Positions 204-24,380 of a stretch of 42,646 nt of DNA are shown here, one piece after another. The number at the start of each line of letters is the position of its first letter. Position 1 is the first letter of the stretch. The stretch lies in assembly GCF_001650875.1 (NCBI RefSeq), contig NZ_LXYI01000022.1:1-42646 (forward strand), written 5' to 3'. The notes beneath the pieces are model-generated. The model was not told the DNA's origin, searched no databases, and was given only the letters and a program-made list of their open reading frames with translations. This stretch comes from Sulfitobacter sp. EhC04. Its GTDB lineage: Bacteria; Pseudomonadota; Alphaproteobacteria; Rhodobacterales; Rhodobacteraceae. A program made the position numbers and the translations under genes.

Positions 204-1166
204 ATGACCTTTCAGCCCGCCACCGTCTCTAACGACCTGACCACGCTACCCAAGCTGCCGGCCTGGGTCACCTCCGGACGTGCGGAAACCTTCGAGTCTG
301 TGGCTTTTCGGTCCGGAGCGGCCCTGACGGTGCTGGATGCTCTGGTTTCCGATCCGGCCCAAGGTGTGCCCCTTAAACTGCTTGCCAACCAGCTTGCATT
401 ACACGCGGCCACGGCGACGTCTAAGCTCGAAGGACGGGTGGCCCGAGAGGCCGATATCCGCGACTCTTTCCATCTGACCCCGCCCGGAGAGGCACGCGGC
501 CCAGATGGAGACCTGCTGGTGTTCTGGCGGGACACGACGCAGTTACGATTGAGCGTGAGGGATTGGCGAGTGGGCTTAGAGGGCCTCGTTGGTCGGCACC
601 TTGCGGCTGACATGCAAGGATGGCTCGCAGTTGGCTCCAAGCGCGCAAAATCTAACGGGCCATTGGCAGGATGCGTTGCTGTGATGCGGGCAGTCCTCGA
701 GGCAGATGACCGGGCGGAACGGATTGCTTGTTTACTGTCCGATATCGCCTTGGCACGCGTGTTAAACTGGCCGGTGCTCCTACCGATTTCGGCACAAAAT
801 CTCACCAAAGCCATGTTGCGCGATTTGGTCGCGGACGGGCAGGGGGCGGACTTGAAAGTTCAGGCGGGCCTTTTGATTTCCATCGAAGACACGATCCGTT
901 TGGCGGGCGATCTCGCATCGAAGGCAGTAGCGTTGCGGGCCGTCGCGCCGAAGCTCCGGGCCAAGGGTTCGGAGGCGGCCGTCGCGCTGTTCCTGTCTGA
1001 AGATGCAATCGGTCCTTCAATGATGCTGTCACCGACAATCCAGGGTACCACGATTCCGATGACCGATCGTGCAGCGCGCCGGTTTTGTGACCGGCTCGTC
1101 GCACTGGGCGTCGCGCGGGAACTCACTGGGCGGCCGACCTTCCGACTCTATGGGATTGTGCGATGA
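204..1166 (+). CDS. DUF1403 family protein
   Basis: A 320-residue protein that I recognise as the DUF1403 family, known mainly from alphaproteobacterial accessory regions and without an established biochemical role. It is rich in Ala and Leu, apparently soluble, with no signal peptide, membrane segment or catalytic motif that I can name. The ATG at 204 has only a weak GGGAT-like ribosome site upstream. Its stop overlaps the next start in an ATGA arrangement, so it is translationally coupled to the scpB-like gene. The coupling suggests the two proteins act together, perhaps in DNA or chromosome maintenance of a mobile region; this last step is inference. Confidence 0.75.
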   Translation: MTFQPATVSNDLTTLPKLPAWVTSGRAETFESVAFRSGAALTVLDALVSDPAQGVPLKLLANQLALHAATATSKLEGRVAREADIRDSFHLTPPGEARGPDGDLLVFWRDTTQLRLSVRDWRVGLEGLVGRHLAADMQGWLAVGSKRAKSNGPLAGCVAVMRAVLEADDRAERIACLLSDIALARVLNWPVLLPISAQNLTKAMLRDLVADGQGADLKVQAGLLISIEDTIRLAGDLASKAVALRAVAPKLRAKGSEAAVALFLSEDAIGPSMMLSPTIQGTTIPMTDRAARRFCDRLVALGVARELTGRPTFRLYGIVR

Positions 1167-1819
1167 CCCGCTCCGCCATGACCTCCGATGCCAAAAGAAA
1201 GAATTCAAAACCGAAGGAGGCCGGACGCGAAGGCGTCTTTGATCGAGAGCTGGAAGACCTGCCGCAAGAGCTGCGGTGGCGGGGATGGATGGGACGGATC
1301 GAGGCGACGTTGTTCGCCAGTGCCTCGCCGGTTGGGCGTGAGGACCTGGCACGTGTGGTGGGGCAGGAGGCCTCGGTCGAGATGCTCATTGAGGATATTC
1401 AGGCGGAGCTTGTGGGGCGACCATATGAATTGGCGGAGACCGCCGGTGGTTGGATGTTTCGGACAAAGACGCAGTTTGCCGAGGCGATCAAGGCTGCGAC
1501 TGATCTTGGGGATCAGCCCTTGGCCTTCACCGAGATGGAAATGGGTGTACTCTGCGCCATTGCGTACCACCAGCCGATTGATCGGGCGGGACTGAAGGAC
1601 ATTTTTGGCAAAGATGTCAGCCGCGACCTGCTGGCGCGGCTGCGGTTTAAGGATCTGATTGCGAGCGGGCCGAGGGCACCGCGCGCCGGTGCCCCGCATA
1701 CCTTTGTGACGACAGAGATGTTTCTGACGGCGTTCGATTTACAGACATTGCGGGATTTGCCTGAACTGGATTTGGCGCTGGCAGACACAGATGAACAGAC
1801 TCGAACGGTACAGATCTGA
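1163..1819 (+). CDS. scpB: ScpB-like SMC-associated protein
   Basis: A 218-residue protein resembling ScpB, the winged-helix subunit that with ScpA and the kleisin-SMC ring compacts and segregates chromosomes. The core, roughly residues 40-170, has the ScpB pattern: an RIEATLFAS helix, then a segment with GGWMFRT, then a second winged helix starting near FTEMEMGVLCAIAYHQP. No scpA is nearby, and the protein carries a charged N-terminal extension, so this is probably an accessory paralogue of the housekeeping ScpB. The ATG at 1163 overlaps the DUF1403 stop; an alternative ATG lies at 1178. It is likely cotranscribed with the DUF1403 gene. Confidence 0.75.
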   Translation: MTRSAMTSDAKRKNSKPKEAGREGVFDRELEDLPQELRWRGWMGRIEATLFASASPVGREDLARVVGQEASVEMLIEDIQAELVGRPYELAETAGGWMFRTKTQFAEAIKAATDLGDQPLAFTEMEMGVLCAIAYHQPIDRAGLKDIFGKDVSRDLLARLRFKDLIASGPRAPRAGAPHTFVTTEMFLTAFDLQTLRDLPELDLALADTDEQTRTVQI

Positions 1820-1913
1820 GGCTCTTCGCTTTCAATTGGTCGGGCTTTGACTTCCAATCAGTCGGAGTTGGAAGCAGACTTTACGTGTGTTTGCACCTTT
1901 TTGAGGTATAGGA

Positions 1914-1973
1914 TTGACTTCTATAGCTCAAAAATGGTCAATATACGAGTTATAGAAAGGGTCTCTATAACTC
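1914..1973 (+). promoter_or_regulatory. Operator/promoter of the fic gene: 10-bp inverted repeat touching the start codon
   Basis: The arms GAGTTATAGA (1947-1956) and TCTATAACTC (1964-1973) are perfectly complementary with a 7-base spacer, and the second arm ends on the base before the ATG. A third, near-identical half-site, TCTATAGCTC, lies at 1920-1929. A possible -35 box TTGACT is at 1914-1919, with an AT-rich -10 candidate around 1939-1945. A protein bound here would block both promoter clearance and ribosome access. The Fic protein itself ends in a winged-helix-like region, so autoregulation is a reasonable inference. Confidence 0.65.
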
Positions 1974-3083
1974 ATGGCATGGAACTGGCAGATATCCGGT
2001 TGGCCGGAATTTCGGTATGACGCGGCAGCATTGGCACCGCTTGAGCAGCGTTTCTTGCTGTCGTTGGGTGAAATTCTGGGTGCGGTTCACCATGTCAGTC
2101 CGTCCGAGCGCGATCAATTGCGCATCGACTTGCTAAGCGATGAAGCCATGAAGACCAGCGCCATCGAAGGCGAGATGCTGGATCGCCAAAGCGTGCAGTC
2201 TTCGCTGCGACGCCAGCTTGGATTGTCGCCTGACAGCTATCCAACCAAGCCCAAGGAACAGGGCGTTGCCGAGATGATGGTCGATGTCTATTCGACCTAT
2301 GCTGAGCCACTTACGCATGAGACCCTGTTCCGATGGCATAGCATGCTGTTGTCCCATGATCGGCGGTTGGAAAGCGTCGGGGCTTACCGCCAGCATGAAG
2401 ACGCCATGCAGATCGTATCGGGTCGCATCGATCGGCCGGTCGTGCATTTTGAGGCACCGCCCTCTTCGCAAGTAGCAGGCGAAATGGATCGGTATGTGGA
2501 TTGGTTCAGCAGAACGGTGCCGAATGCGAAAGAACCCTTGCCCGCTTTGACGCGCGCTGGCCTCAGCCATCTCTACTTCGAAAGCATCCATCCTTTTGAA
2601 GACGGCAACGGTCGTTTGGGGCGGGCCCTCGCAGAAAAGTCTCTAGCGCAAAACATGGGCCAACCCAGCCTGATCGCGCTCGCCTACTCGATAGAACGGG
2701 AGCGGAAAGCATATTACGATCAGCTTGAGCGGCACCAGCAGACGTTGGATGTGACGCCGTGGTTGGAATGGTTCGCGGAGACTGTTCTGACCGCACAACA
2801 GGTCACCCTGGATCGGGTCGGGTTTTTCATCGCGAAGGCGCGTTTTTATGACCAGCACCGCGATCAATTGAACGTCCGGCAGGCCAAGGCGATCGAACGC
2901 ATGTTCCGTGAGGGACCAGACGGGTTCAAAGGTGGCTTGAGTGCCGAGAACTACATTTCGATTACTGGCACGTCACGGGCCACGGCAACACGGGATTTGC
3001 AAGACCTCGTCGAGATGAGCGCTCTGAGTCGGTCCGGCGAACGCCGCTACACGCGCTATTGGTTAAATCTAAAAAGGCCCTGA
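1974..3083 (+). CDS. Fic-domain protein with N-terminal DUF4172 and C-terminal winged helix
   Basis: A 369-residue Fic protein, the family that usually transfers AMP from ATP to protein hydroxyls. The start WNWQISGWPEFRYD matches the DUF4172 N-terminal region. Residues 61-66 (TSAIEG) fit the inhibitory motif (S/T)xxxE(G/N), whose Glu blocks productive ATP binding. Residues 206-214 (HPFEDGNGR) are the complete Fic catalytic motif with His206. The C-terminal ~70 residues, with TSRATATRDLQDL, look like a winged helix. This is the class of self-inhibited, DNA-binding Fic proteins; some act as toxins or stress regulators. No separate antitoxin gene is seen. An inverted repeat abuts the start codon. 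Placement beside cas9 may be chance or part of a defence cluster. Confidence 0.9.
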   Translation: MAWNWQISGWPEFRYDAAALAPLEQRFLLSLGEILGAVHHVSPSERDQLRIDLLSDEAMKTSAIEGEMLDRQSVQSSLRRQLGLSPDSYPTKPKEQGVAEMMVDVYSTYAEPLTHETLFRWHSMLLSHDRRLESVGAYRQHEDAMQIVSGRIDRPVVHFEAPPSSQVAGEMDRYVDWFSRTVPNAKEPLPALTRAGLSHLYFESIHPFEDGNGRLGRALAEKSLAQNMGQPSLIALAYSIERERKAYYDQLERHQQTLDVTPWLEWFAETVLTAQQVTLDRVGFFIAKARFYDQHRDQLNVRQAKAIERMFREGPDGFKGGLSAENYISITGTSRATATRDLQDLVEMSALSRSGERRYTRYWLNLKRP

Positions 3084-3084
3084 A

Positions 3085-3255
3085 ATAGGAAGCGCAGGCC
3101 GTAGCCTGCGCTCCAATGTGGTGCAATCGAATGCTTGTTAACAGCTCGACGCGGATTTTGAACAATGCAATGTTCCGGCCTCACGACCTCGTTGTCAAGC
3201 AGCAACTAGCAAGGTTTGGAAGACCAGCTAAACACAAACAGAATTGGTGTGGACC
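3085..3255 (-). ncRNA. Candidate tracrRNA for the type II-C Cas9
   Basis: The 247-base gap between fic and cas9 holds what a tracrRNA needs on the minus strand. There is a TTGACA box at 3291-3286, about 35 bases before a start near 3255. A possible anti-repeat covers about 3235-3200; its complement ends in CAGCTAAAC, a plausible 3' end for a type II-C repeat. Small hairpins follow (for example TAGC...GCTA at 3230-3207, and ACGA/TCGT near 3190-3181). A strong terminator hairpin at 3111-3092 precedes T-rich sequence. No good -10 box is seen. With no repeat array in the window the anti-repeat cannot be confirmed by pairing, so this rests on position and architecture. Confidence 0.45.
3092..3111 (-). 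terminator. Rho-independent-type hairpin, best read on the minus strand
   Basis: Perfect 8-base stem GCGCAGGC / GCCTGCGC with a 4-base loop. On the minus strand it is followed by TTCCTATTT. On the plus strand the following bases (TCCAATGTGG) contain no T-run. It therefore fits the end of a minus-strand RNA (the proposed tracrRNA) better than the end of the fic transcript, although it could serve both. Confidence 0.6.
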
Positions 3256-3330: not shown

Positions 3331-6300
3331 ATGCGCTTGGGTCTTGACATCGGCACGAACTCAATTGGCTGGTGGCTTTACCAAACGGACGACGGCACGA
3401 TCACGGATGTGCTTGATGGGGGTGTGCGGATATTCTCGGATGGGCGCGATCCGCAATCCAAGGAATCGTTGGCGGTGGATCGTCGCGTTGCCCGCGCGCA
3501 GCGCCGCCGACGGGACAGGTATCTGCGCCGTAAAGCGGCGCTGATGAAGCGGATGGCCGGGGCAGGGTTAATGCCGACCGATCAGGCGCACGCCAAAAAG
3601 CTTGAATCCCTCGACCCATACGCACTCCGCGCTGAAGGGTTGGACTGCGAGTTGCCATTGACCCATCTGGGGCGTGCATTGTTCCACCTGAACCAACGGC
3701 GAGGGTTCAAATCGAACCGAAAGACGGATCGGGGCGACAATGAAAGCGGTAAGATTAAGGATGCAACCGCGCGGCTTGATTGGGCGATGCGCGATGCCAA
3801 GGCGCGGACTTATGGCGAGTTTCTGCATACGCGCCAGCAAAAGGCAGATGATCCAAAACGTATGCCGACGGTGCGCACCCGCTTGACTGTGGCGCGGCGT
3901 GACAATGCCGAGAAGGAGGAGGCGGGGTATGATTTTTATCCGGATCGCCGCCACCTGTCCGAAGAATTCGACGCGCTTTGGGCGGCGCAGGCAGACTATC
4001 ATGAAGCGCTGAGCGATGACCTGCGCGATCAGATCAAAACGATCATCTTTCATCAGCGGCCTTTGAAAACGCCCGAGGTTGGCCTGTGCTTGTTTACGGA
4101 CGAACGGCGCATTCCATCCGCCCACCCGCTGAACCAGCGACGTATTTTGTTGGAAACGGTCAATGCGTTGCGCATCGTCGCACGGGGTGAGGCGGCACGG
4201 CGTCTGACGCTGGAAGAACGCGATCAGATCGTTCATGCACTGGACAACAAGAACCACACTAAAACCCTGTCGGGCATGGCGATGAAACTCAAAGCGCTGG
4301 GGAAGGTAATTAGGCTGCGCAGTGACCAGACTTTCACGTTGGAAACCGCCAACCGTGATGCGATTGCCTGTGATCTCGTTCGCGCGAGCCTGTCGCATCC
4401 GGACCGGATGGGTGGCGTTTGGACGACGCTAGATGAAGGTGCGCAGTGGGAGGTGGTTCAACGTATTCGTGCGGTTCAAAGCGACAGTGAATTTGACGCG
4501 CTTGTTGTATGGCTGGAACAAAATCACGGGTTGGACAATGCCCATGCACAGGCCACGGCCAACGCACCCCTGCCCGAAGGGTATGGGCGGATGGGGTTGA
4601 TGGCGACGCGCCGCATTCTAGCGGCGCTCCAGTCGGATGTGATGCCCTACAGCGATGCCGTTGCGGCCTGTGGCTGGTCTCATTCTGGTGGGCCAACGGG
4701 GGAGGTGTTGGAAAAGCTGCCCTATTACGGTAAAATCCTCGATCGGCATGTAATTCCCGGCACCTATGACGAAAACAACGAAGACGTGAAACGCTACGGG
4801 CGCATCACAAACCCCACCGTGCATATCGGGCTGAACCAGATCAGGCGGTTGGTGAACCGGATCATCTGTATTCATGGCAAGCCGGATGAAATCGTTGTCG
4901 AACTGGCGCGGGACTTGAAAAACTCCGAAGATCAAAAACGCGAAATCCAGAAGATCATAAAGAAAAACACCGACGCCGCGATTAAACGCGGGGAAAAACT
5001 GATCAATGAGTTGGGTCAGAAGGATACGGGCGCGAACCGTTTGGTTCTGCGCCTTTGGGAGGATCTGGGGCATGACGTGATGACCCGCAACTGCCCCTAT
5101 TCTGGAAAACGGATCAGTGCAGGCATGTTGTTTGACGGATCGTGCGATGTCGATCACATCTTGCCCTATTCCCGCACGCTGGATGATGGCATTGCGAACA
5201 AGACCTTGTGCTTGAAAGAAGCGAACCGCCAGAAAAGCAACAATACCCCGTGGGAGGTTTGGGGCGAGACAGAACAATGGGATACCATTGCGGCCAACCT
5301 CAAGAACCTACCTGACAATAAGGCGTGGCGCTTTGCGTCAGATGCCATGCAACGTTTTGAAGGGGAGAACGATTTTTCCGCCCGCGCTCTTAAGGACACC
5401 CAATACCTATCGCGCATTGCGCGCGCCTATCTGGATGCTCTTTATGATGGCGGGGACGGTAATTCCCACGTCTGGGTCGTGCCGGGCCGTTTGACCGAAA
5501 TGTTGCGCCGCCATTGGGGACTGAACGGGTTAGAGGCGCTGACGGATAGCGATGAAAACACCGTCAAGGCCAAGAACCGGATGGATCATCGACACCATGC
5601 CATTGATGCCGCCGTTGTCGCTGCCACGGATCGCGGCCTGATCCAGCGGATCAGCAAGATCGCCAAACGCGACGAACAGGCTGGCGCCGAAGAGGTCGCA
5701 CGCAGCGTTTCACCGCCATGGGATGGGTTTCGCGATGATATCGCGGCACAGCTGTCGCGCATCATCGTCAGCCACCGCGCCGATCACGGGCGGATCGACA
5801 GCCAAGCGAAACAGCAAGGCGAGGATGCGACTGCGGGTCAGCTGCACATGGACACCGCATACGGCGTGGTTGATGCGGGTCGCGTCGTGAGCCGTAAACC
5901 GCTGCTTTCGCTTAGCGAAAGCGATATCAAGAAAATCCGTGACCCTGACTTGCAGCGCCACTTAACACGTGTGACCAAAGGGTTGGATAAAAAGGAGTTT
6001 GAACACGCGCTGTCCGATTTCGCTAATGCCCGAAAGCTGCCCGATCAATCTGAAAACCCCTATTTCGGGATGCGTCGTGTGCGGTTGATAGACGCCCTGC
6101 AAGACAGCGCGCGCGTGTCCGTCAGAGACAGGGATGGACATATTTATAAGGCCTATAAAGCGGGCAGTAACCATTGCTATGAGGTCTGGCGCCTCCCCGA
6201 CGGGAAGATCAAACCGTGGGCGATTTCCACGTTTGAGGCGCATCAAACAGGCACGGAATCCAAACCGCATCCGGCGGCAAAACGGCTTTTAAGGGTGTTC

Positions 6301-6546
6301 AAACGCGATATGGTTGCCATTGAACGGGACGGGGAAACGCTGATGTGCTATGTTCAGAAAATGGACATTGCGAACGGGCTGTTTCTGGTGCCGCATACGG
6401 AAGGCAATGCCGATGCACGCAACCGCGACAAGGACGACAGTTTCAAGTTTATCCAGATGTCTGCAGTGTCGTTGATCAGGGCAAAGATCCGCCGGATTCA
6501 CGTCGATGAAATGGGCCGATTGCGCGATCAGGGACCGCCCCGTTAG
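3331..6546 (+). CDS. cas9: Cas9, CRISPR-associated endonuclease, type II-C
   Basis: RNA-guided DNA endonuclease of 1071 residues, in the compact range of type II-C. RuvC-I is GLDIGTNSIGW with Asp6. The arginine-rich bridge helix is at about 50-75 (RRVARAQRRRRDRYLRRK). RuvC-II is IVVELARD with Glu524. The HNH domain has CDVDHILPYS with Asp608-His609 and ANKTL/NRQKSNN downstream. RuvC-III is HHAIDAAVVAATD with His756 and Asp759. The last ~250 residues form the wedge and PAM-interacting part. All expected catalytic residues are present and the frame is open throughout, so it should be active if a guide exists. The ATG at 3331 is chosen because the family begins here and an AAGGGG ribosome site lies 7 bases upstream; the frame extends to 3244 without support. 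The cas1 following it is truncated. Confidence 0.97.
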   Translation: MRLGLDIGTNSIGWWLYQTDDGTITDVLDGGVRIFSDGRDPQSKESLAVDRRVARAQRRRRDRYLRRKAALMKRMAGAGLMPTDQAHAKKLESLDPYALRAEGLDCELPLTHLGRALFHLNQRRGFKSNRKTDRGDNESGKIKDATARLDWAMRDAKARTYGEFLHTRQQKADDPKRMPTVRTRLTVARRDNAEKEEAGYDFYPDRRHLSEEFDALWAAQADYHEALSDDLRDQIKTIIFHQRPLKTPEVGLCLFTDERRIPSAHPLNQRRILLETVNALRIVARGEAARRLTLEERDQIVHALDNKNHTKTLSGMAMKLKALGKVIRLRSDQTFTLETANRDAIACDLVRASLSHPDRMGGVWTTLDEGAQWEVVQRIRAVQSDSEFDALVVWLEQNHGLDNAHAQATANAPLPEGYGRMGLMATRRILAALQSDVMPYSDAVAACGWSHSGGPTGEVLEKLPYYGKILDRHVIPGTYDENNEDVKRYGRITNPTVHIGLNQIRRLVNRIICIHGKPDEIVVELARDLKNSEDQKREIQKIIKKNTDAAIKRGEKLINELGQKDTGANRLVLRLWEDLGHDVMTRNCPYSGKRISAGMLFDGSCDVDHILPYSRTLDDGIANKTLCLKEANRQKSNNTPWEVWGETEQWDTIAANLKNLPDNKAWRFASDAMQRFEGENDFSARALKDTQYLSRIARAYLDALYDGGDGNSHVWVVPGRLTEMLRRHWGLNGLEALTDSDENTVKAKNRMDHRHHAIDAAVVAATDRGLIQRISKIAKRDEQAGAEEVARSVSPPWDGFRDDIAAQLSRIIVSHRADHGRIDSQAKQQGEDATAGQLHMDTAYGVVDAGRVVSRKPLLSLSESDIKKIRDPDLQRHLTRVTKGLDKKEFEHALSDFANARKLPDQSENPYFGMRRVRLIDALQDSARVSVRDRDGHIYKAYKAGSNHCYEVWRLPDGKIKPWAISTFEAHQTGTESKPHPAAKRLLRVFKRDMVAIERDGETLMCYVQKMDIANGLFLVPHTEGNADARNRDKDDSFKFIQMSAVSLIRAKIRRIHVDEMGRLRDQGPPR

Positions 6547-6614: not shown

Positions 6615-7082
6615 TTGGACCAAATCATCGAGATTGCCATCGATGGGCGACACCTATCGCGTGACCGTGGATTTCTGAAAGTTTCGCAAGACCACGCCGA
6701 GGTCGGGCGCACGCCGCTTGATCAAATTGCGGGTGTGATCGTTCATGCCCATGGTACAACCTGGTCAACGTCATTGTTGACTGAACTTGCAGATCGCGGT
6801 GTGCCTGTCGTGTTGTGCGCGGCAAACCACGCGCCAAGATCCGTGTTGATGCCGCTGGAAGGGCACCATGCCCAAGGTGCGCGGATGCGGTCCCAATGGC
6901 AGGCGAAAACCTCCCTTGTCAAACAAGCCTGGAAACAAGTGGTGATCGCCAAGGTATTAATGCAGGCCGCAGCCCTTGATGCGGTTGGCGAACCGGACGC
7001 CCCGTTGAAAATGATGGCGCGCAAGGTCACATCGGGTGACGCCACCAACATCGAAGCGCAGGCTGCTGTCACTGTACCCTAA
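6615..7082 (+). pseudogene. cas1: cas1, 3' half lost at transposon insertion
   Basis: Cas1 is the integrase that inserts new spacers into CRISPR arrays. The N-terminal half is clear: DQIIEIAIDGRHLSRDRGF, then VIVHAHGTTWST, LCAANHAP and GHHAQGARMRSQWQ, typical of type II-C Cas1. The first metal-binding Glu (Glu147 in NIEAQAA) remains. The family is about 300 residues, but here only about 150 Cas1 codons (6615-7066) survive. The last few residues (VTVP and the stop at 7080) are encoded by the transposon end, so the downstream active-site His and Asp are missing. The likely start is TTG at 6615, about 70 bases after cas9. The product cannot integrate spacers. Confidence 0.93.
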
Positions 7083-7188
7083 TTAATCAGAATCACGACT
7101 GAAATTTTCATTTGTTTTCAGCAGTGGGCTGCACCCTTAATTTTCATATTGTACCGTTAATTGCCATACTGTACCCTTTATTAGCATA
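7067..7188 (+). repeat. Left transposon end: inverted repeat plus four 19-bp transposase sites
   Basis: The consensus TGTACCCTTAATTANCATA recurs at 7073-7091, 7130-7148, 7150-7168 and 7170-7188. The last three are in phase at 20-bp steps. These are probably binding sites for TniA, as TnsB sites are in Tn7-like elements. Part of the region reads TGCACCCTTAATTTTCATA, showing divergence between copies. Confidence 0.8.
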
Positions 7189-7218
7189 TGGTCGATTCTG
7201 TGGATAAGTATCGGCCAC

Positions 7219-8865
7219 TTGGGTCAGGAGATTGGCGTGGTCAGCGAGCGTCTTGCAAAACATCGAGCTTCGGTCCTGCGTCCGATCCTGGAGCTTGAGA
7301 AGAAGGGTGAGCCGATCAGTGCCGCGATCGGAGATGCTGCTTGGGAACTGGGTCTGGCGAAGAGCCATACCTGGTCCCTTTACCGCCGTTTGCGCGAGAA
7401 CGATGGGCGGGCCACGGCGTTGGAGCTCGGCCGTCGCGGGCCGCAGCTAGGATCGAAACGGATCGCGCGAGAAGTTGAACACCTGATCGATGCGAGCCTG
7501 CGGCGCTATTATCTGGTCCGCGAGCGGCCCAGTTTTCTGCGCATTTGGCGAGAGATCCGTTCGGAGTGCGAGGCGAAGGGTTTTCAGCCCCCGACGCGGA
7601 AGACGGTAAAAGCTCGGCTTGATGCGATGGATGAGAAAGAGATTGTTCGAAAGCGTCGTGGTGCCAAGGAGGCGAATAAGACCTTTGCGGCACGTCCGGG
7701 CCGACTTGCGGTCGGAACGCCATTAGACATTGTACAGATCGATCACACGATGGCTGACATCATCTTGGTCGATTACATGGATCGGCGTCCGCTTGCGCGC
7801 CCCTATCTGACGGTGGCAATCGATGTTGCGACCCGGATCGTTCTTGGGGTTTTTGTCAGCTTTGATGCGCCGTCGGTCTTGTCTATCGCGCTCTGCCTCG
7901 ATCACTGCGTGCGCCGGAAATCAATCCACGTCCCAGGGACGTTGGAAGAGTTGGTCTGGCCAACGTCCGGTATCCCGAAGGCAATCCATGTCGACAATGC
8001 CCAGGAATTCCACAGCGAGGCTTTCTCATCGGCCTGCGAAGATTGGGGCATCGCCGTCGAATACCGCCCGCCTGGTGCAACTCACTTCGGTGGCCACATC
8101 GAACGTTTAATTGGAACGGCTATGGGGGCCGTTCATGTTCTGCCCGGAACCACGCAGTCCTCCGCCGCCGAGAAGGGCGACTACGACAGCGGGAAACATG
8201 CCGCTCTGACTCTAGCCGAGTTCGAGGAGTGGCTTGATCTGGAGATTTGTCGCTACCACAACACGCGTCACGAAGCCCTTGGGCGAACGCCGCTGGCTGC
8301 CTGGGCTGACCTGGGCGGGGACACAGCGGGTCGGCAGGTCATCGACGTTGAAGCCTTTCGCACAAGCTTCTTGCCATTTGAGTGGCGCCAGGTCGGGCGC
8401 ACCGGGATCACTCTCTTTGGGGTGCACTACTGGAGCGATGTCTTCGCGTCGTTGGTCGGACGCGGTCAGGGCAAGGTTCAGGTGAAATACGATCCGAGGG
8501 ACCTGTCACAGGTCTGGGTTCTCGTCGACGACGGCCGCATGATCCCGGCGCGGTATCGGGATCTGAGCCACCCGAGGATATCGCTTTGGGAAAGCCGGCG
8601 GGCGCGGAAGGAATGGCAGGATCGGCATGTTGGCCGGATTAATGAGAAGGCCCTCTTCCAGGTGATCGATGCGCAGCGTCGGTTGGCTGAGGCGGCGCGT
8701 GAGAAGACGAGGACCGCCCGTCTGGAAAGCGAGCGCGCGACGCGGCTTCCAAAGCAAAAGCCGCATCGTGATCCATCCCGGGAGATGTTTGCGATCGATA
8801 CCGGTAACCCCGACCTTCCCACCTATCCGATTGAAGAGTTTGATGACCCCAGAAGAAAGAATTGA
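7219..8865 (+). CDS. tniA: TniA, DDE transposase (TnsB-like)
   Basis: The 548-residue catalytic transposase of the element. An N-terminal helix-turn-helix region recognises the ends. The retroviral-integrase-fold core carries Asp175 (IVQIDHT), Asp259 (HVDNAQEF) and Glu295 (HIERLIG), with D-to-E spacing of 36. A Mu-type C-terminal beta-barrel and a charged tail follow, the tail presumably contacting TniB. Length and motif order match intact family members. The open frame begins with TTG at 7219; a GTG at 7237 is an alternative start, and neither has a strong ribosome site. The gene overlaps tniB by 23 bases. Confidence 0.93.
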   Translation: MGQEIGVVSERLAKHRASVLRPILELEKKGEPISAAIGDAAWELGLAKSHTWSLYRRLRENDGRATALELGRRGPQLGSKRIAREVEHLIDASLRRYYLVRERPSFLRIWREIRSECEAKGFQPPTRKTVKARLDAMDEKEIVRKRRGAKEANKTFAARPGRLAVGTPLDIVQIDHTMADIILVDYMDRRPLARPYLTVAIDVATRIVLGVFVSFDAPSVLSIALCLDHCVRRKSIHVPGTLEELVWPTSGIPKAIHVDNAQEFHSEAFSSACEDWGIAVEYRPPGATHFGGHIERLIGTAMGAVHVLPGTTQSSAAEKGDYDSGKHAALTLAEFEEWLDLEICRYHNTRHEALGRTPLAAWADLGGDTAGRQVIDVEAFRTSFLPFEWRQVGRTGITLFGVHYWSDVFASLVGRGQGKVQVKYDPRDLSQVWVLVDDGRMIPARYRDLSHPRISLWESRRARKEWQDRHVGRINEKALFQVIDAQRRLAEAAREKTRTARLESERATRLPKQKPHRDPSREMFAIDTGNPDLPTYPIEEFDDPRRKN

Positions 8866-9700
8866 CCGCATCCGCAGCGATCATTGGATCGCATTCGACC
8901 GTGCAACGATTGTTCTCAACCGATTGACGGCTTTGATGGAAATGCCGCAGCAGAGCCGGATGCCTGGCCTAATGGTCTACGGCAGTTCCGGCATCGGTAA
9001 AACGATGATCGCCAAACGCATGGCCAGCAAGTATCCGACACAGTACGATGCAGAACTGGGCATCACGAAAACCCCCATCCTGCTGGTTCAGGCGCCGCCG
9101 GCGCCCGACGAGCGACGGTTCTACCAGCATATCCTGTCGACGATCGGAGCGCCGATGTGGGGGCGGCATACCGTGTCCGAACTTGAGGTTCGCGCGCTCA
9201 GCCATCTTCGGGATATGGACCTCAAAATGCTGATGATCGATGAGGTGCACAATTTGCTGGCCGGGAGCTACCGGGAGCAGCGCCGGTTCCTGAACATGCT
9301 GCGGTTCCTGGCCAACGATCTTTGTGCCTCGCTTGTCGTGTTCGGTGTCAACGAAGCCCTTGAGGCCGTCCGCGGTGACGACCAACTCGCCCGTCGGTTG
9401 GACGAACACTACCTGCCGCTCTGGGAGGATGACGTTGAGTTCTCTCAGCTCATTCAGACGTTGATTGCCGCGATGGCACTCGAGCAACGGTCGGGCCTGA
9501 CAGTCGCGTCGCTTCGGACGATCCTGAAGGTGACGGGAGGTGTGACGTCGCGCGTGTTCATCATGATCAAGTCTTTGGCCGTTGAGGCGATCGAGACGGG
9601 TGAGGAGCGGATCACCGATGATGCCGTTCAGTCCTGGCAGCCGGTATGGGCAAAGCACGCCTGGAGCACTCCACGCCGGCCAATGGCAGAGTTCGGGTAA
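8843..9700 (+). CDS. tniB: TniB, AAA+ ATPase of the transposon (TnsC-like)
   Basis: A 285-residue ATPase that in this family selects target DNA and activates the transposase. Walker A is YGSSGIGKTMI and Walker B is LKMLMIDEVHNLL, followed by an arginine-bearing sensor region (LARRLDEHYLPLW). The ATG at 8843 (MTPEERIDRIRSDHW) is chosen as the family-like start; the frame is open to 8669 only because it runs beneath tniA. It overlaps tniA and tniQ on either side, so the three genes form a tight operon. Confidence 0.92.
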   Translation: MTPEERIDRIRSDHWIAFDRATIVLNRLTALMEMPQQSRMPGLMVYGSSGIGKTMIAKRMASKYPTQYDAELGITKTPILLVQAPPAPDERRFYQHILSTIGAPMWGRHTVSELEVRALSHLRDMDLKMLMIDEVHNLLAGSYREQRRFLNMLRFLANDLCASLVVFGVNEALEAVRGDDQLARRLDEHYLPLWEDDVEFSQLIQTLIAAMALEQRSGLTVASLRTILKVTGGVTSRVFIMIKSLAVEAIETGEERITDDAVQSWQPVWAKHAWSTPRRPMAEFG

Positions 9701-10632
9701 CAATCAAACCATTGCCACGCCGTCCGCCGCCGATACGCGATGAGCTGCTCTCGAGCTGGATCAGGCGGCTGGCACAGGCCAATCATTGTTCCGTCGAAGA
9801 CCTCTGCGGATATCTCGGATTGGGGCAGGGCAGGATGCCGGAGCTAATGAACGATCTCGGACAGGTGAACTGGGCTCGCTTTTGCTCGGCGGTTCAACGG
9901 ACCCGGGATGAGATCGAGGCCATGGCTCTTCCGGACACGACCCATCTTCCCGTTCAATGCGTATCGCGTGACGACTTCCAGGTTTGCGAAAGCTGCACGG
10001 ATCAGACGCCCGGACTGATCCTGCGCCACTGGCGCTTGGGTTGGTCGCTGACTTGCGGAAACTGTGGTCGACCCCTTTTGGCGAGGCATCCGTCAGATGG
10101 TCTATCAGACAGGCTACGTGTCCGCGCCGCTCGCGGCGCGGCAGTGCTGCAGACTGTGGTTCAAACCAACGATCTTGGGCGCATACGCCGGATCAGCCGC
10201 ACCTTGTCCGTTCTGAGGATACTTGGTTTGGAGTACCCCGCTTCGTTCACGTCTCGGGGCCAGTTGGAGAGATCAGCAGCACTTGCCGCAGTCGATGTCT
10301 GCACGACCCGCCCGTTGCTGGGCGCAGCAATCCTATTGTGCAGAAACGACAGGGCATTCTGGGAGCTCCGCCGTGTCTTTCCCCAGCACAGACGAGTGAT
10401 TGCGCGGGTGCTAACGCTGTCACACGATCTCGAGAGGCGACTTCCGCGCCAACCAAAAGGGAAGCGTGTGCCAAAGCAAGAAACGCGAACAGCGAACCGA
10501 CCGGTCGCGTCGGAAGGTGCCCTACAGGCAGCCCGCCAGGCCATCTCTGAGCTTGGGCCCGATGCAGCTCGTCAAGTGCTCTTGGCGCGAGCGGATACAA
10601 TCTGGAAGCGCGAAAGCTGCGTCAGGTACTGA
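9646..10632 (+). CDS. tniQ: TniQ family target-selection protein
   Basis: A 328-residue TniQ protein, the transposition accessory factor of Tn5053/Tn7-like elements. The N-terminal domain contains the typical P-x-RDELLSSWIRRLA start. It is followed by paired zinc-binding cysteines, CESC (near residue 114) and CGNC about 30 residues later. The C-terminal half is less conserved and ends in a basic tail. The ATG at 9646 overlaps tniB by 55 bases. No Cas gene is fused or linked inside the element, so nothing suggests RNA-guided targeting. Confidence 0.9.
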   Translation: MGKARLEHSTPANGRVRVTIKPLPRRPPPIRDELLSSWIRRLAQANHCSVEDLCGYLGLGQGRMPELMNDLGQVNWARFCSAVQRTRDEIEAMALPDTTHLPVQCVSRDDFQVCESCTDQTPGLILRHWRLGWSLTCGNCGRPLLARHPSDGLSDRLRVRAARGAAVLQTVVQTNDLGRIRRISRTLSVLRILGLEYPASFTSRGQLERSAALAAVDVCTTRPLLGAAILLCRNDRAFWELRRVFPQHRRVIARVLTLSHDLERRLPRQPKGKRVPKQETRTANRPVASEGALQAARQAISELGPDAARQVLLARADTIWKRESCVRY

Positions 10633-10650
10633 CGCGGAGCCCTGTGGATA

Positions 10651-10726
10651 TATTGTAATTAAGGGTACAAAAACCGCCGAAAAGGCGTCCAATCCGCAGA
10701 ATCTGATTAATTAGGGTACAGTGACA
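10651..10726 (-). repeat. Right transposon end: two transposase sites and inverted repeat
   Basis: Inverted copies of the 19-bp site are at 10651-10669 and, as the terminal repeat, at 10702-10720; the element ends with GTGACA at 10726. The right end thus has two sites against four on the left, an asymmetry known in Tn7-like elements. A small CGCC/GGCG hairpin lies between them. Confidence 0.8.
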
Positions 10727-10741
10727 CCGAGGCTCCCTCAT

Positions 10742-11599
10742 TCATAACGAGAGTCTGCGGGTCTGGTTTTCATATTCTTCGGTTTGGGTTTGAGCAAGCG
10801 CGGCGGGCGCGGAGCCCTCAAATTGCTCAAGCGTCCGGCGCGCTTCTGCGGGTGTATTGTTGCCGAGTGACGAGTGCGGCCTGACGTCGTTGTAATCATA
10901 TCGCCATAGGGCCAGCTTGCGTCTTGCATCGTCCAGGCTGTCGAACATCTCCTCGTTTAGGAGTTCGTCGCGCAAGCTGCCGTTGAAGCTCTCGATGAAG
11001 GCGTTCTGCTGGGGCTTGCCAGGATCGATGTAATGCCACTCAACGCCGTTGCGGTTGGCCCATTCCAGGATCGCGCGACTGGTGAACTCCGTCCCGTTAT
11101 CACTGACAATGCTAGCCGGTTTGCCATAGAGCCGGACAAGTGCATCCAGTTCCCGTGCCACCCGTGCGCCTGAGATGCTGGTGTCAGCCATCAGGCAGAG
11201 GTTCTCACGACAGCAATCATCATTCACAGCCAGGATGCGGAACCGCCGCGATGCGCCGAAAGTATCGGACAAGAAGTCCAACGACCATCGTTCACCCAGT
11301 CTTAGAGCTTCTGGCATCGGTGTGCGTGACCCACGAGCCCGTTTGCGCCCACGTCGCGGCCTGACGCCCAGTTTCTCCTCCGTATAGAGGCGATACAGCT
11401 TCTTGTGGTTCATGATCATTCCCTTGCGTTCCAGCATCACCCCGATCCGCCGATAGCCGAACCGGGGGCGTTTGTGCGCAACGGCCTTCATCTCCTCGCG
11501 GATCTCAGGATTGTCAGGCGGACGATCACGCCGAACGGTTTTGGGGTCGACACCGACAAGACGGCAGGCCCGACGTTGCGAGATGTCATGCTCTCGCAT
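10742..11599 (-). CDS. IS3-family transposase OrfB
   Basis: The catalytic half of the IS3 transposase, normally made as an OrfA-OrfB fusion by programmed frameshifting. The HTH-like start ([19 protein letters not shown]) is followed by the integrase core with Asp108 (WSLDFLSD), Asp167 (IVSDNGTEF) and Glu203 (NAFIESFNG), D-35-E spacing. The reading frame is intact over 285 residues. The first ATG of the frame is given; in vivo translation probably enters by frameshift from orfA at about 11640. Confidence 0.93.
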
Positions 11600-11637
11600 C
11601 GCCTTAAGCGCTGCCGCTCGCCGCTCAGCCGGTGTCG

Positions 11638-11901
11638 TTAGTTCTTTCCCAGCAGATCCTTCAGTACAACATTGTCCAACATGGCATCCGCCAGCAGGCG
11701 TTTGAGTTTGGCGTTCTCGTCAGTGACCGCGCGCAGCTTCGCCGCATCCGACACCTCCATGCCGCCATACTTCGACTTGAACTTGTAGAACGTCCCCTGG
11801 CTGAGACCGTGCTTGCGGCACACCTCAGCAGTTGGCATCCCGGCTTCTTGCTCTTTGATCATCCCGATAATCTGGGCTTCTGTGAAACGGCTCTTTCGCA
11901 T
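11638..11901 (-). CDS. IS3-family transposase OrfA
   Basis: An 87-residue helix-turn-helix protein of the IS3 family that binds the IS ends. It begins [19 protein letters not shown] with the HTH in the first ~45 residues ([20 protein letters not shown]). A leucine-zipper-like stretch ([20 protein letters not shown]) mediates contact with OrfB. It ends just upstream of orfB in a different frame, the layout that uses a -1 frameshift. Confidence 0.93.
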
Positions 11902-11969
11902 CTGTTTGCTCCTTCGAAAGGTTGAGCAAACTCTACATTAAAGTGCGGGAGGTTTCGGGGGGCAGGTCA

Positions 11970-12395: not shown

Positions 12396-14899
<2,504 letters not shown>

Positions 14900-15301
14900 A
14901 TGAAAATCGCAAAAGCAGGTTCCAGTGCATCCAGTTGGGCCCCGGCAGAAAACTTTACTGGGCGCGTGCGTCGAGATCCTTTAGTTGCTCCGGAGAGCCC
15001 CGGTCGGGCGGTCGCAGGTTGTGTTACTTTTGAACCGGGCGCGCGGACAGCTTGGCATACGCATCCGGCAGGTCAGATACTCATCATCACAGCCGGAAAA
15101 GGATGGGTCCAACGCGAAGGTGGCCCACGTGAAGAGGTAACGCCAGGAGATTCAGTTTGGTTTGATGCGAACGAAAAACACTGGCACGGCGCGACTGACA
15201 AGACGGCGATGACGCACATTGCGGTGACCGAGTTTATTGAAGGCGAAGCGGCGGACTGGCTCGAGCATGTATCTGATGCCGACTATGACTATAATGGCTG
15301 A
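14900..15301 (+). CDS. Small cupin resembling Mn-dependent hydroxynitrile-lyase cupins
   Basis: A 133-residue single-domain cupin. Metal-ligand positions His53, His55, Gln59 (AWHTHPAGQ) and His94 (NEKHWHG) match those described for the manganese-dependent cupin hydroxynitrile lyases of the GtHNL/AcHNL type. The surrounding sequence (TFEPGARTAWHTHP and GDSVWF) is also alike. The natural role of that family is unknown, and lyase activity may be incidental. Many relatives sit in degradation clusters beside carboxymuconolactone-decarboxylase-like genes, as here. It is the first gene of the plus-strand catabolic island and about 300 bases before the TRAP genes. Confidence 0.85.
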   Translation: MKIAKAGSSASSWAPAENFTGRVRRDPLVAPESPGRAVAGCVTFEPGARTAWHTHPAGQILIITAGKGWVQREGGPREEVTPGDSVWFDANEKHWHGATDKTAMTHIAVTEFIEGEAADWLEHVSDADYDYNG

Positions 15302-15604
15302 TCTGGCTTTTGCTCTGTCAGATGAGCACTCATCGAAAATCAACGTGGTTTTGGGCAGTTAGCTGTTCGTCATAGACCTTTGAAGACTTGTTCAGGACCT
15401 TTGCAGAATTCGCAAAAGTGGTTTGATTTTGAAGGCCTATAGTCATCACAAGACACATTTGGTGACTCGCCAAGTGCATGAGACGGGTAGGGAGGCCCTG
15501 CATCATGAAATCATCAAGAATAGGAATTGCTCAGCGCCTGACGTGTTCGTCAAATGGCGGTGTTCACGCGCAATCAATGCGTTGCCGAATGGAAGTTTAG
15601 TCTA
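15302..15604 (+). promoter_or_regulatory. Leader region before the TRAP operon with repeated GACCTTTG and a small dyad
   Basis: 303 bases with no supported gene. GACCTTTG occurs at 15375-15382 and again at 15396-15403, two helical turns apart. The second copy runs into the dyad TTTGC...GCAAA (15400-15416). These are candidate operator half-sites for a regulator of the transporter operon. The following bases up to the start codon contain a short open frame that I regard as chance. Confidence 0.35.
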
Positions 15605-16156
15605 ATGGGTAGTGTTGAGCGGGCACTTCTGACACTGTCGAAGCTGCTTATCTGGCTTTCCGGGTTATTCTTGTTTTGCATGATGTTACACGTCCTAAGC
15701 GACGTAATCATGAAAACCTTCTTCAATTCCCCGATCCCCGGAACATCAGAGTTTGTCGCTCACTACTACATGGTCGCTGCGGTGTTTCTACCCATGCCTT
15801 TCGTGGAAATGCGGAATTCGGGCATTGCGGTTGATCTTTTTTATAACCTGTTCGGCCCTGCGATTCAGCGGATCATGCTGCTCTGCGCTTATCTCGGGCA
15901 ACTGACATTTTTCTCTTTGTTGGCTTATCAGTCCGGTCTTGATGCTTGGCATGCATGGGAAGTGCGTGAATACCTGTCCGGCCAGATTATCGTCACGATA
16001 TGGCCCGCGTCGTTTTTTCTGCCAGTGGGATTTGGTTTGTCGGCTTTGGCCAGTGCCCTGCGGTTTGTGCAAGTCATCCATCGTCCAGATTGGGTCACCG
16101 TGACTGAATACAAGTCTGCAGAAGAAGTAGACCGCCGCGTAAAGGATATTGGCTAA
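15605..16156 (+). CDS. TRAP transporter small permease (DctQ type)
   Basis: A membrane protein of about 183 residues with four hydrophobic segments, the small integral subunit of a tripartite ATP-independent periplasmic transporter. It supports the large permease in sodium-driven uptake of organic acids. Segments start near LLIWLSGLFLFCMMLHVL, then FVAHYYMVAAVFLPM, MLLCAYLGQLTFFSLL and IWPASFFLPVGFGLSALA. The ATG at 15605 (MGSVERALL) is preferred on family length; the frame is open from 15554. Its stop overlaps the next ATG (TAATG). Confidence 0.9.
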   Translation: MGSVERALLTLSKLLIWLSGLFLFCMMLHVLSDVIMKTFFNSPIPGTSEFVAHYYMVAAVFLPMPFVEMRNSGIAVDLFYNLFGPAIQRIMLLCAYLGQLTFFSLLAYQSGLDAWHAWEVREYLSGQIIVTIWPASFFLPVGFGLSALASALRFVQVIHRPDWVTVTEYKSAEEVDRRVKDIG

Positions 16157-17463
16157 TGGAACGCATTGAAATCGGTATACTTGGTATCGTCATAGCACTG
16201 GTATTGATGGCTTTGCGTATGCAGGTGGGCGTAGTGCTGGGTCTGGTGGCTTTTGTCGGGATTTCCGTCTTGACCAGTGTAAGCGCCGCTTGGGGCATTC
16301 TCACTGCCATCCCCCTGAACTTCATTGCCGACTGGAACCTGAGTGCGGTGCCGATGTTCCTTCTGATGGGCTACATTGCGGCGCAGGCAGGACTGACCAA
16401 AGGCCTTTTTCAGAGCGCCCGTATCTTCTTGGGGCGGGTACCGGGGGGATTGGCATCAGCGACCGTAATAGCCTCGGCGCTATTCGCGTCAGCGTCAGGG
16501 TCCAGCGTGGCAACAGCGGCTGCATTTTCTCGAATTGCCGTCCCAGAAATGCTGAAATCAGGCTACAAGAGCTCTCTGGCGACCGGGAGCGTCGCGGCGG
16601 CGGGAACGCTAGGTTCGCTCATTCCACCGAGCATCTTGATGATCCTATTTGGAATATTCACAGAAACCTCCATCGGTTCTCTGTTCATTGGTGGCATCTT
16701 GCCGGGTATCCTGTCGGCTTTTGCTTTCATCGTGATGATCACAGTGCGCGCAAAGCTCGATCCTACGCTAGCACCCGTCAATGAGGTGCGTGCCACCCAT
16801 CAGGAAACGTGGGAGGCACTTCGCGGAATATGGCCACTGCCGACTCTTATTCTGGGCGTGCTGGGTGGCATTTTTGCTGGCTTCTTTTCACCCACAGAAG
16901 CGGGAGCGGTTGGGGCTGCCTTGGCAGTACTGATCGCTGTGGTGAGGCGCACACTTTCCGTGAAAGCCATTCGGACTGCATTGATCGAGACCGCAGAGGG
17001 TACATCGACGGTATTTGTTATCGCCATCGGTGCGACGATGTTCTCGGTGTTCCTAGGGCTTTCTTCGGTGCCAAACGCTCTGGCCGACTGGTTGCTCGGG
17101 GTTATCGAGTCGCCCGTTGCAGTAATCATGGCCATCGCGGTGATCTACATTTTGCTGGGAATGTTCGTCGACAGCGTTTCAATCATGCTGCTGACAATTC
17201 CCATCATCGACCCGATCCTGAAGGGCCTGGGTGTCGATATGATTTGGTTTGGCATCATTGCGATCAAACTGCTTGAGATCGGCATGGTAACGCCACCTGT
17301 CGGCCTGAATGTCTACGTAATCCGAAGCGCCTTAGGATCAAGCGTAAACATCACCGATGTGTTCCGGGGAGTGTCGTGGTTCATCTTGACCGACATTGTG
17401 ACTTTGGCCCTATTGATCGGTTTTCCGGCAATCACGCTCTTTCTGCCTCAAATCATGAATTAA
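16156..17463 (+). CDS. TRAP transporter large permease (DctM type)
   Basis: A 435-residue large permease forming the elevator-type transport domain. Typical family stretches are seen: ASGSSVATAAAFSRIAVPEM near 112-131, GTLGSLIPPSILMILFG and, in the second half, PPVGLNVYVIRSALG. The multiple hydrophobic helices cover the full length. Start and stop agree with neighbours: it overlaps the small permease by one base and is followed after 52 bases by the binding protein. Substrate cannot be read from the sequence, but the catabolic context suggests a carboxylate intermediate or growth substrate. Confidence 0.95.
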   Translation: MERIEIGILGIVIALVLMALRMQVGVVLGLVAFVGISVLTSVSAAWGILTAIPLNFIADWNLSAVPMFLLMGYIAAQAGLTKGLFQSARIFLGRVPGGLASATVIASALFASASGSSVATAAAFSRIAVPEMLKSGYKSSLATGSVAAAGTLGSLIPPSILMILFGIFTETSIGSLFIGGILPGILSAFAFIVMITVRAKLDPTLAPVNEVRATHQETWEALRGIWPLPTLILGVLGGIFAGFFSPTEAGAVGAALAVLIAVVRRTLSVKAIRTALIETAEGTSTVFVIAIGATMFSVFLGLSSVPNALADWLLGVIESPVAVIMAIAVIYILLGMFVDSVSIMLLTIPIIDPILKGLGVDMIWFGIIAIKLLEIGMVTPPVGLNVYVIRSALGSSVNITDVFRGVSWFILTDIVTLALLIGFPAITLFLPQIMN

Positions 17464-17515
17464 GTTCCGAAACGACCAACTACCATAATCAACACCACCA
17501 AAGGGAGATACTAAC

Positions 17516-18643: not shown

Positions 18644-18736
18644 GCAGAGCATTGCGTGATCAAACCACGTGACAAAAAACCTTGCGCTAGGTTGCGACCC
18701 GGCGCAGGAAACTCTCCGGCGAGAATGGCTTGCAGC

Positions 18737-19591: not shown

Positions 19592-19632
19592 ATTCGGCGC
19601 TCAATTTCATTCAAGATGGAGATATCAAAACA

Positions 19633-20397: not shown

Positions 20398-20421
20398 CAG
20401 GATCATTTGGAGGTTTTTGAG

Positions 20422-21438: not shown

Positions 21439-21450
21439 CAAAGCGTTGTC

Positions 21451-24353: not shown

Positions 24354-24380
24354 TCATCCATCCAGTGAAGGTGACCGCCC

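What the first reader, a model, noticed from the sequence alone, without database searches (positions are those of the whole stretch)
6615..10741. Cas9 locus beheaded by a TniABQ transposon whose two flanks do not match
cas1 stops exactly at the left inverted repeat (7067). Beyond the right inverted repeat (10726) there is no cas1 but an IS3-family element missing about 10 bases of its tip. The 5-base flanks differ (GCTGC versus CCGAG). A simple insertion would give identical 5-mers and cas1 on both sides. The simplest model is recombination between two copies of the transposon, one in cas1 and one in an IS3 end, or an adjacent deletion. Either would have removed or relocated the rest of cas1, cas2 and the array. 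Basis: flanks and repeats seen directly; the 5-bp duplication rule is family knowledge; the recombination model is inference.
Basis: partly seen in the sequence, partly recalled or inferred. Interest (0 to 1): 0.75.

Follow-up and report, generated by a model that had tools for sequence, protein, structure and literature searches.

The report
Unresolved transposon scar beheads Cas9 locus
A transposon that likely copies itself without ever cleanly separating the joined DNA sits where half of a Cas9 system's cas1 gene, its cas2 gene and its spacer array are missing, and none of the 21 complete copies scored, this one included, has the matching flanks that a simple insertion leaves.

Summary
A 3,660-bp tniABQ transposon (7067-10726, perfect 25-bp inverted repeats) cuts cas1 after 150 codons; the flanks are GCTGC and CCGAG, and the IS3 element on the right lacks 11 tip bases. 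The cas1 3' half, cas2 and relatives' CRISPR repeat were not found in the assembly. Cas9 is open and a predicted tracrRNA remains.

The mismatch is not peculiar to this locus. None of 17 contiguous complete copies, one IS-split copy, three collapsed copies or six mini-elements has matching 5-mers. In Sulfitobacter sp. THAF37 the partners were found: two target sites are each split between two plasmids, one 5-bp copy beside a different transposon copy. Each rejoined site is intact, 795/795 bp, in three other plasmids. That is the signature of replicative transposition never resolved, fitting an element with neither TnsA nor a resolvase gene.

So the window junction is best read as one product of replicative transposition, with a likely adjacent deletion or a lost partner molecule carrying away the adaptation genes and array. 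It is a variant of known TnsA-less, cointegrate-forming Tni/Tn7-like elements.

The parts
3073..3171 (-). Predicted tracrRNA: anti-repeat (3137-3171), then a stem-loop and a T run
   Evidence: Alignment score 39 to the relatives' repeat complement against a maximum of 31 in 300 shuffles; core conserved in 5 relatives; minus strand 3066-3171 folds with z -2.14, 3 of 200 shuffles as good, while the plus strand 3137-3245 does not (z 0.63). Ends estimated; not shown to be transcribed.
3331..6546 (+). cas9, 1,071 codons, open
   Evidence: NCBIfam TIGR01865 E 2.5e-168 over 2-1062; Pfam HNH_4 and RuvC_III; RuvC-I, RuvC-II and HNH motif patterns matched, my typed RuvC-III pattern did not (motif names recalled)
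6615..7066 (+). cas1 5' fragment, 150 codons; the L032 relative has 303
   Evidence: Pfam Cas1 6-123/283; TIGR03639; 69-87% identical over all 150 codons in 12 of 14 relative loci compared, one further locus matching 76 codons and one with no match (its Cas9 match also breaks off); L032 Cas1 303 aa
7062..7066 (+). Left flank GCTGC, last bases of cas1
   Evidence: sequence
7067..7091 (+). Left 25-bp terminal inverted repeat
   Evidence: perfect pair with 10702-10726
7130..7189 (+). Three motif copies at 20-bp spacing (7130, 7150, 7170) inside the left end; one more near 10669 on the minus strand at the right end: inferred TniA-binding sites
   Evidence: motif scan; function inferred from Tn7/Tn5053 ends (recalled)
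7237..8865 (+). tniA, DDE transposase; D-D-E motif residues present
   Evidence: Pfam rve and Mu-transpos_C; nearest solved relative Tn6677 TnsB, E 4e-39; motifs (recalled)
8843..9700 (+). tniB, AAA+ ATPase
   Evidence: Pfam TniB E 9.7e-61
9646..10632 (+). tniQ
   Evidence: Pfam TniQ E 2.8e-11
10702..10726 (-). Right 25-bp terminal inverted repeat; only 94 bp between tniQ stop and element end, no room for a resolvase gene
10727..10731 (+). Right flank CCGAG, inside the IS3 element
   Evidence: sequence
10727..11969 (-). IS3-family element lacking its terminal 11 bp (TGACCTGCCCC in L117)
   Evidence: Pfam rve/rve_3/HTH_21; IS ends compared with 4 plasmid copies and own C8 copy
204..3083 (+). 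DUF1403 - ScpB - Fic genes left of cas9; DUF1403-ScpB lies near rep genes in plasmids of relatives
   Evidence: Fic, ScpB, DUF1403 by the annotation of plasmid matches; rep genes nearby

Best explanation
This is a tniABQ transposon with no TnsA and no resolvase gene that likely entered cas1 by replicative (copy-in) transposition whose fused product was never resolved, so one flank is half of one target (cas1) and the other is half of another (the IS3 tip). Steps. Shown: the two half-targets, the perfect ends, the absence of the other halves from the assembly, and the lack of matching 5-mers in every scored copy of the family. Shown in a relative: each target's two halves carry one copy of the 5-bp duplication and sit beside two different transposon copies on two plasmids. 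Inferred: TniA nicks and joins only the 3' ends, replication through the element makes a cointegrate (or, within one molecule, a deletion or inversion), and no recombinase separates the products. Here the likely outcome was an adjacent deletion, or loss of the partner molecule, that took the cas1 3' half, cas2 and the CRISPR array and left Cas9 and its predicted tracrRNA without guides or spacer acquisition. Because contig C22 reads through the element unbroken, while a genome with identical copies (G633) has its contigs broken inside the ends, a second identical copy carrying the missing half is unlikely in this genome (inference).
For: One-sided 95% upper bound on the matched fraction at n=21: 13%, if independent. 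(2) THAF37: Tn1 right 5-mer = Tn3 left (GACGG), Tn3 right = Tn2 left (ATCGC). Joined without one 5-mer, both sites are found uninterrupted, 795/795 bp at 100%, in three other plasmids each. Breakpoints fall exactly at the transposon ends. (3) The pattern A[Tn]t1, t1[Tn]t2, t2[Tn]B is what two successive replicative transpositions of one copy give; Tn2's right end faces Tn1's left end in the same orientation, as required. (4) No resolvase gene fits after tniQ, and no TnsA or resolvase domain was matched in TniA, TniB, TniQ or in the 8 of 13 other inner ORFs scanned. [quoted passage not shown] (5) A left flank shared 1500/1500 bp by G633 and a Sulfitobacter alexandrii plasmid has in neither case the same right flank: none of G633's three right flanks is the S. 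alexandrii one. (6) The method sees duplications when present: the IS inside the own C84/C28 copy has a 9-bp duplication (sequences, read by eye), and 2 of 5 IS3 copies have matching 4-mers.
Against: The partner half-sites of the window itself were not found, so the mechanism here rests on relatives. The THAF37 arrangement could also arise from simple insertions followed by homologous recombination; its outer half-sites (CAAGT, CCGGC) have no partner in the two plasmids, and its chromosome was not searched. RecA should resolve 3.6-kb direct repeats now and then and leave matched copies, yet none was seen; the model does not explain this. The sample is small and not fully independent (two pairs share a left flank). 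19 unpaired ends and the collapsed own contig C54 were not scored. No positive control with a resolvase-bearing tni element was run here; published 5-bp repeats around Tn5053-type elements (passages) stand in for it.
Confidence: 0.72

Rival explanations
1. Two simple insertions, one in cas1 and one in an IS3 tip, recombined by homologous recombination; the reciprocal product was lost.
For: Gives the same final flanks; the element is multicopy in some relatives; THAF37 could be written this way too.
Against: Requires simple insertions with matching 5-mers, of which 0 of 21 were seen. The window element has no close second copy in its genome (next best 77%). G390 shows one copy by the end-repeat search, with mismatched flanks. 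In THAF37 it needs more events and a further matched copy, whereas the outer 5-mers CAAGT and CCGGC differ.
Confidence: 0.18
2. Assembly or mapping artefact: the two sides of C22 were wrongly joined through a repeat.
For: Draft assembly, 89 contigs, with other transposon copies at contig ends (C28, C54, C84).
Against: The nearest other copy in the genome is 77% identical, too different to mislead an assembler over 3.6 kb. Finished plasmid records show the same mismatch in 12 of 12 copies.
Confidence: 0.04
3. The element inserts into broken DNA or by an unusual cut without making any target duplication.
For: Such movements are proposed for some IS elements (PMC11708052, passages); no scored copy has matching flanks.
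Against: In THAF37 each split site has exactly one 5-bp copy on each half, and both joins restore sequences that exist uninterrupted elsewhere, so a 5-bp duplication is made.
Confidence: 0.04
4. Ordinary simple insertion whose left or right flank was later replaced by an unrelated deletion or IS event.
For: One flank is an IS3 element, and IS elements cause deletions.
Against: The IS3 is cut 11 bp inside its tip exactly at the transposon's last base, so the transposon end, not the IS end, made the junction.
Confidence: 0.02

Closest known systems
Tn5053/Tn402 family (tniABQ-res-tniR)
   Same: tniA, tniB, tniQ in one direction, 25-bp inverted repeats, 5-bp target duplication, replicative transposition (PMC7765201, passages)
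   Different: No tniR gene; no matching flanks in any scored copy; targets read here include cas1, an IS3 tip and a DUF2235 gene rather than res sites
[quoted passage not shown]
   Same: TnsB/TnsC/TniQ machinery without TnsA or resolvase, forming cointegrates (PMC8188705 and PMC11406308, passages)
   Different: No Cas12k or CRISPR array in the element; the nearby Cas9 is its victim, not its guide
Adjacent deletions by replicative IS elements (IS150, IS903)
   Same: Missing target duplication next to a deletion that starts at the element's end (PMC11708052, passages)
   Different: Different transposase class and a three-gene machinery; for the IS elements it is one outcome among several, here no other outcome was seen
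Type II-C CRISPR-Cas loci of Rhodobacterales (cas9-cas1-cas2-array)
   Same: Gene order, Cas9 and Cas1 families, anti-repeat upstream of cas9; the II-C label is by gene order, recalled
   Different: cas1 cut after codon 150, cas2 and array gone

Membership tests
Tn5053/Tn402 family | tniA-tniB-tniQ operon | tested here: met
   Pfam
Tn5053/Tn402 family | 25-bp terminal inverted repeats | tested here: met
   perfect pair
Tn5053/Tn402 family | res site and tniR serine resolvase | tested here: not met
   94 bp between tniQ and the end; no resolvase domain in tniABQ or in the 8 of 13 other inner ORFs scanned; a res site as such was not searched for; not filed as a member for this reason
Tn5053/Tn402 family | 5-bp direct repeats around the element | tested here: not met
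   0 of 21 scored complete copies around one copy; but a 5-bp duplication split between two copies in THAF37
Tn5053/Tn402 family | preference for res sites | tested here: inconclusive
   Four targets read: cas1, IS3 tip, DUF2235 gene, and a spot 17 bp past a tyrosine recombinase gene. The last could hint at recombinase-linked sites; other targets were not mapped
Type V-K CAST | Cas12k and CRISPR array inside the element | tested here: not met
   only tniABQ recognised inside 7067-10726; no repeats
Type II-C CRISPR-Cas | cas9 with HNH and RuvC domains | tested here: met
Type II-C CRISPR-Cas | complete cas1 and cas2 | tested here: not met
   cas1 truncated, cas2 not found
Type II-C CRISPR-Cas | CRISPR array | tested here: not met
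   none in the window; relatives' repeat core not in the genome at up to 3 mismatches
Type II-C CRISPR-Cas | tracrRNA with anti-repeat | tested here: met
   predicted only, minus strand 3073-3171; expression not tested

The most novel reading that the evidence does not exclude
This is a self-standing family of roseobacter transposons that never makes a finished simple insertion: each move fuses, splits or trims replicons, each copy is a junction between two half-targets, and the family is a main shuffler of the group's plasmids, at times erasing defence genes such as the CRISPR adaptation module.
Probability: 0.4. Interest if true: 0.7.

Novelty: new variant of a known kind. Interest (0 to 1): 0.52.

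Why it matters
[quoted passage not shown] This family has neither enzyme and no CRISPR guide, and its natural copies show what follows: unresolved junctions, targets split across plasmids, and local loss of genes, here the spacer-acquiring half of a Cas9 system. It makes the fate of cointegrates in native hosts testable by sequence alone. It also warns that 'no target duplication' is the usual state for such elements, not proof of misassembly or of a rare accident. No paper describing these elements appeared in the rows listed by my searches (top 9 to 15 rows of each, titles and abstract starts only).

Tried and rejected
Rejected: assembly misjoin (next copy 77% identical; finished plasmids show the same). 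Rejected: a different duplication length or shifted boundary (k 4-10, offsets 0-5: at most 2 of 22 copies fit any one setting). Rejected: insertion without any duplication (THAF37). Led nowhere: plasmid matches for 11990-36900 (none, near mode only); same-genus synteny for 12396-24396 (51 of 58 genomes, own included, have matches, but outside the own genome only pieces of about 500 bp or less at 64-89%); near-identical relatives of the own C54 element in plasmids (none); Rfam (no match); short-distance repeats in own C84, first 20 kb of C28 and C63 (none); folding the anti-repeat region on the plus strand (z 0.63). In S. alexandrii, W02 and W06a share a 9.3-kb block ending at the transposon's right end; this fits a rearrangement but does not by itself show which mechanism. 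One left/right 5-mer match between unrelated genomes (G382 and the W08 mini-element) is taken as chance. Not scored: 19 unpaired ends (11, 2, 6) and own contig C54 (flanks not assembled). Plasmid hit H10 is a copy cut short at its right end beside another tni element, so it has no pair of ends. The end-to-end copies in G382, G107, G233 and G390 were judged complete by the spacing of their two ends (about 3.66 kb), not by reading their genes.
Full report
What is there. The window is the whole of contig C22 (42,646 bp) of a 4.85-Mb draft genome. From the left it carries DUF1403, ScpB and Fic genes, cas9, a cas1 fragment, a tniABQ transposon, an IS3-family element and about 30 kb of other genes. 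The transposon spans 7067-10726. Its ends are the same 25 bp in inverted orientation, found nowhere else in the genome without mismatch. Genes are tniA (DDE motif residues present, nearest solved relative Tn6677 TnsB), tniB and tniQ. Only 94 bp separate tniQ from the right end, so there is no room for a resolvase gene, and no TnsA or resolvase domain was matched in these three proteins or in the 8 of 13 other inner ORFs that I scanned.

The flanks. The left flank is GCTGC, inside cas1 after codon 150; the right flank is CCGAG, inside the IS3 element, whose outer 11 bp are missing. In relatives at 68-80% Cas9 identity, all 6 loci searched for repeats have an array after cas1; in L032, which I read, the order is cas9-cas1-cas2-array with 36-bp repeats, Cas1 and Cas2 confirmed by Pfam. 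In the own genome Cas1 occurs only as this fragment, Cas2 is not found by Pfam, and neither the relative's cas1-3'/cas2/array DNA (best E 0.048) nor its repeat core is found. What remains is an open cas9 and, upstream of it, an anti-repeat conserved in relatives. On the minus strand this continues into a stable hairpin and a T run (z -2.14), which I read as a predicted tracrRNA.

Is the mismatch special? I scored each copy found whose two ends could be paired. In plasmids: 12 complete copies in 9 records. In genomes: four contiguous copies from a 394-genome search of the family, and three collapsed copies in G633 from a 389-genome search of the order. In the own genome: the window copy, and a second copy split between contigs C84 and C28 by an IS with a perfect 9-bp duplication (that C84 and C28 belong together is inferred from that duplication). 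Result: 0 of 17 contiguous, 0 of 1 IS-split, 0 of 3 G633 copies in any pairing, together 0 of 21; and 0 of 6 mini-elements of about 270-530 bp. Allowing other duplication lengths and shifted boundaries did not help. 19 unpaired ends and own contig C54 could not be scored; hit H10 is a truncated copy.

Where the partners went, in one strain. Sulfitobacter sp. THAF37 has three copies in the plasmid collection: Tn1 and Tn2 on pTHAF37_a, Tn3 on pTHAF37_f; its chromosome was not searched. Tn1's right flank starts GACGG and Tn3's left flank ends GACGG; Tn3's right flank starts ATCGC and Tn2's left flank ends ATCGC. Joining each pair without one 5-mer gives sequences that exist uninterrupted, 795 of 795 bp, in other plasmids: three Sulfitobacter plasmids for the first; S. 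indolifex, S. pontiacus and Ruegeria sp. THAF33 plasmids for the second (8 records in all covering at least 80%). Alignment to the S. indolifex plasmid breaks exactly at the transposon ends. Beyond about 640 bp the left half of the second site continues on pTHAF37_a with the same neighbour gene as in Ruegeria THAF33, not as in S. indolifex, so the S. indolifex plasmid is a reference for the sites, not the ancestor of the whole. One target's halves, each with one copy of the duplication, thus sit next to different transposon copies on different plasmids.

Mechanism. A transposase that joins only 3' ends, with replication through the element, leaves t[Tn]B and A[Tn]t: each copy then has one flank from the donor and one from the target. 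Two such events starting from one copy A[Tn]B give A[Tn]t1, t1[Tn]t2 and t2[Tn]B, which are Tn1, Tn3 and Tn2. The model also requires Tn2's right end to face Tn1's left end in the same orientation, and it does. Whether the 37.8 kb between them was ever a separate replicon is not settled; no replication gene is listed there, in a gene table that is incomplete. Homologous recombination among simple insertions could give a similar picture but needs more steps and matched copies that were not seen. [quoted passage not shown] PMC3960245, passages); a TnsA-less, resolvase-less CAST gives mostly cointegrates (PMC8188705, passages).

Applied to the window. The element's flanks are half of cas1 and most of an IS3 element, the same anatomy. 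The other halves are not in the assembly. In G633, which has identical ends on several contigs, the transposon collapses into its own contig (C63) and its neighbours end 95 bp inside it. Contig C22 instead runs through unbroken, so a second identical copy with other flanks is unlikely here. I therefore favour an adjacent deletion by intramolecular transposition, or a cointegrate whose other part was lost, over an exchange with a surviving partner. Either removes cas1 3', cas2 and the array in one or two steps. The left side carries DUF1403-ScpB, which lies near rep genes in other plasmids, so the Cas9 locus was probably plasmid-borne; the right side (11990-36900) gave no plasmid match in near mode.

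What does not fit. RecA should turn some cointegrates into matched simple insertions, yet none of 21 is matched. Either intramolecular events outrun resolution, or something limits recombination between copies. I cannot tell which. A left flank shared by G633 and S. alexandrii (1500/1500 bp) without a shared right flank, and one shared by W02 and W06a, suggest that rearrangement at the element's end goes on after insertion.

Verdict. It is a resolvase-less, TnsA-less variant of Tni elements, with direct evidence in a relative for targets split between replicons.

Noticed in passing
W08 (NZ_CP085156.1) 115300-115827; G107:C16:9483-9789; G106:C2:114280-114586; G247:C55:1112-1420; G640:C46:6512-6817; G520:C8:247198-247464: Mini-elements of about 270-530 bp bounded by the same 25-bp ends (up to 3 mismatches), too short for the tni genes; all six have mismatched 5-mers, as if moved in trans by the same unresolved process.
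   Followed up: partly
window 204-3083; L125 6422-7908; L124 170360-171843; L134; L135; L055: A DUF1403-ScpB gene pair near rep genes and a tyrosine recombinase in roseobacter plasmids borders a spot that holds varying defence-type genes (Fic, Cas9, AbiEii-type) and, in several plasmids, this transposon.
   Followed up: partly
own contig C54 (L003): A 3,659-bp contig that is one whole tniABQ element plus one base (71% identical to the window's), likely a collapsed multicopy repeat; its flanks are unknown.
   Followed up: no
own contigs C84:7176-7282 and C28:1-3636: A second transposon copy split by an IS with a perfect 9-bp duplication (GGCGGTTTG); its left end cuts a gene that looks like an antirestriction or zincin-type protein (no family search run); its own flanks are CCTAT and ACATC.
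   Followed up: partly
L054 (Ruegeria sp. SCSIO 43209 plasmid, NZ_CP065363.1 17422-22754): A copy nested between TniQ and TniB fragments of another tni element, with partly repeated gene order on the two sides.
   Followed up: no
L055 (pSD25, Ruegeria sp. PR1b): A copy cut off inside tniB (2,066 bp kept), sitting after ScpB-Fic as in the window but without an annotated cas9 between them.
   Followed up: partly
CP069018.1 and other Pseudosulfitobacter pseudonitzschiae plasmids: Plasmid-borne cas9 genes about 65% identical in DNA to the window's: 18 of the 20 rows listed.
   Followed up: no
L125 29373-30022: In pTHAF37_f the transposon sits 17 bp past the end of a tyrosine recombinase gene, which may hint at a taste for recombinase-linked sites.
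   Followed up: no
window 20463-20512 and 26805-26854: A 50-nt stretch repeated at 80% identity 6.3 kb apart, probably inside two related genes.
   Followed up: no
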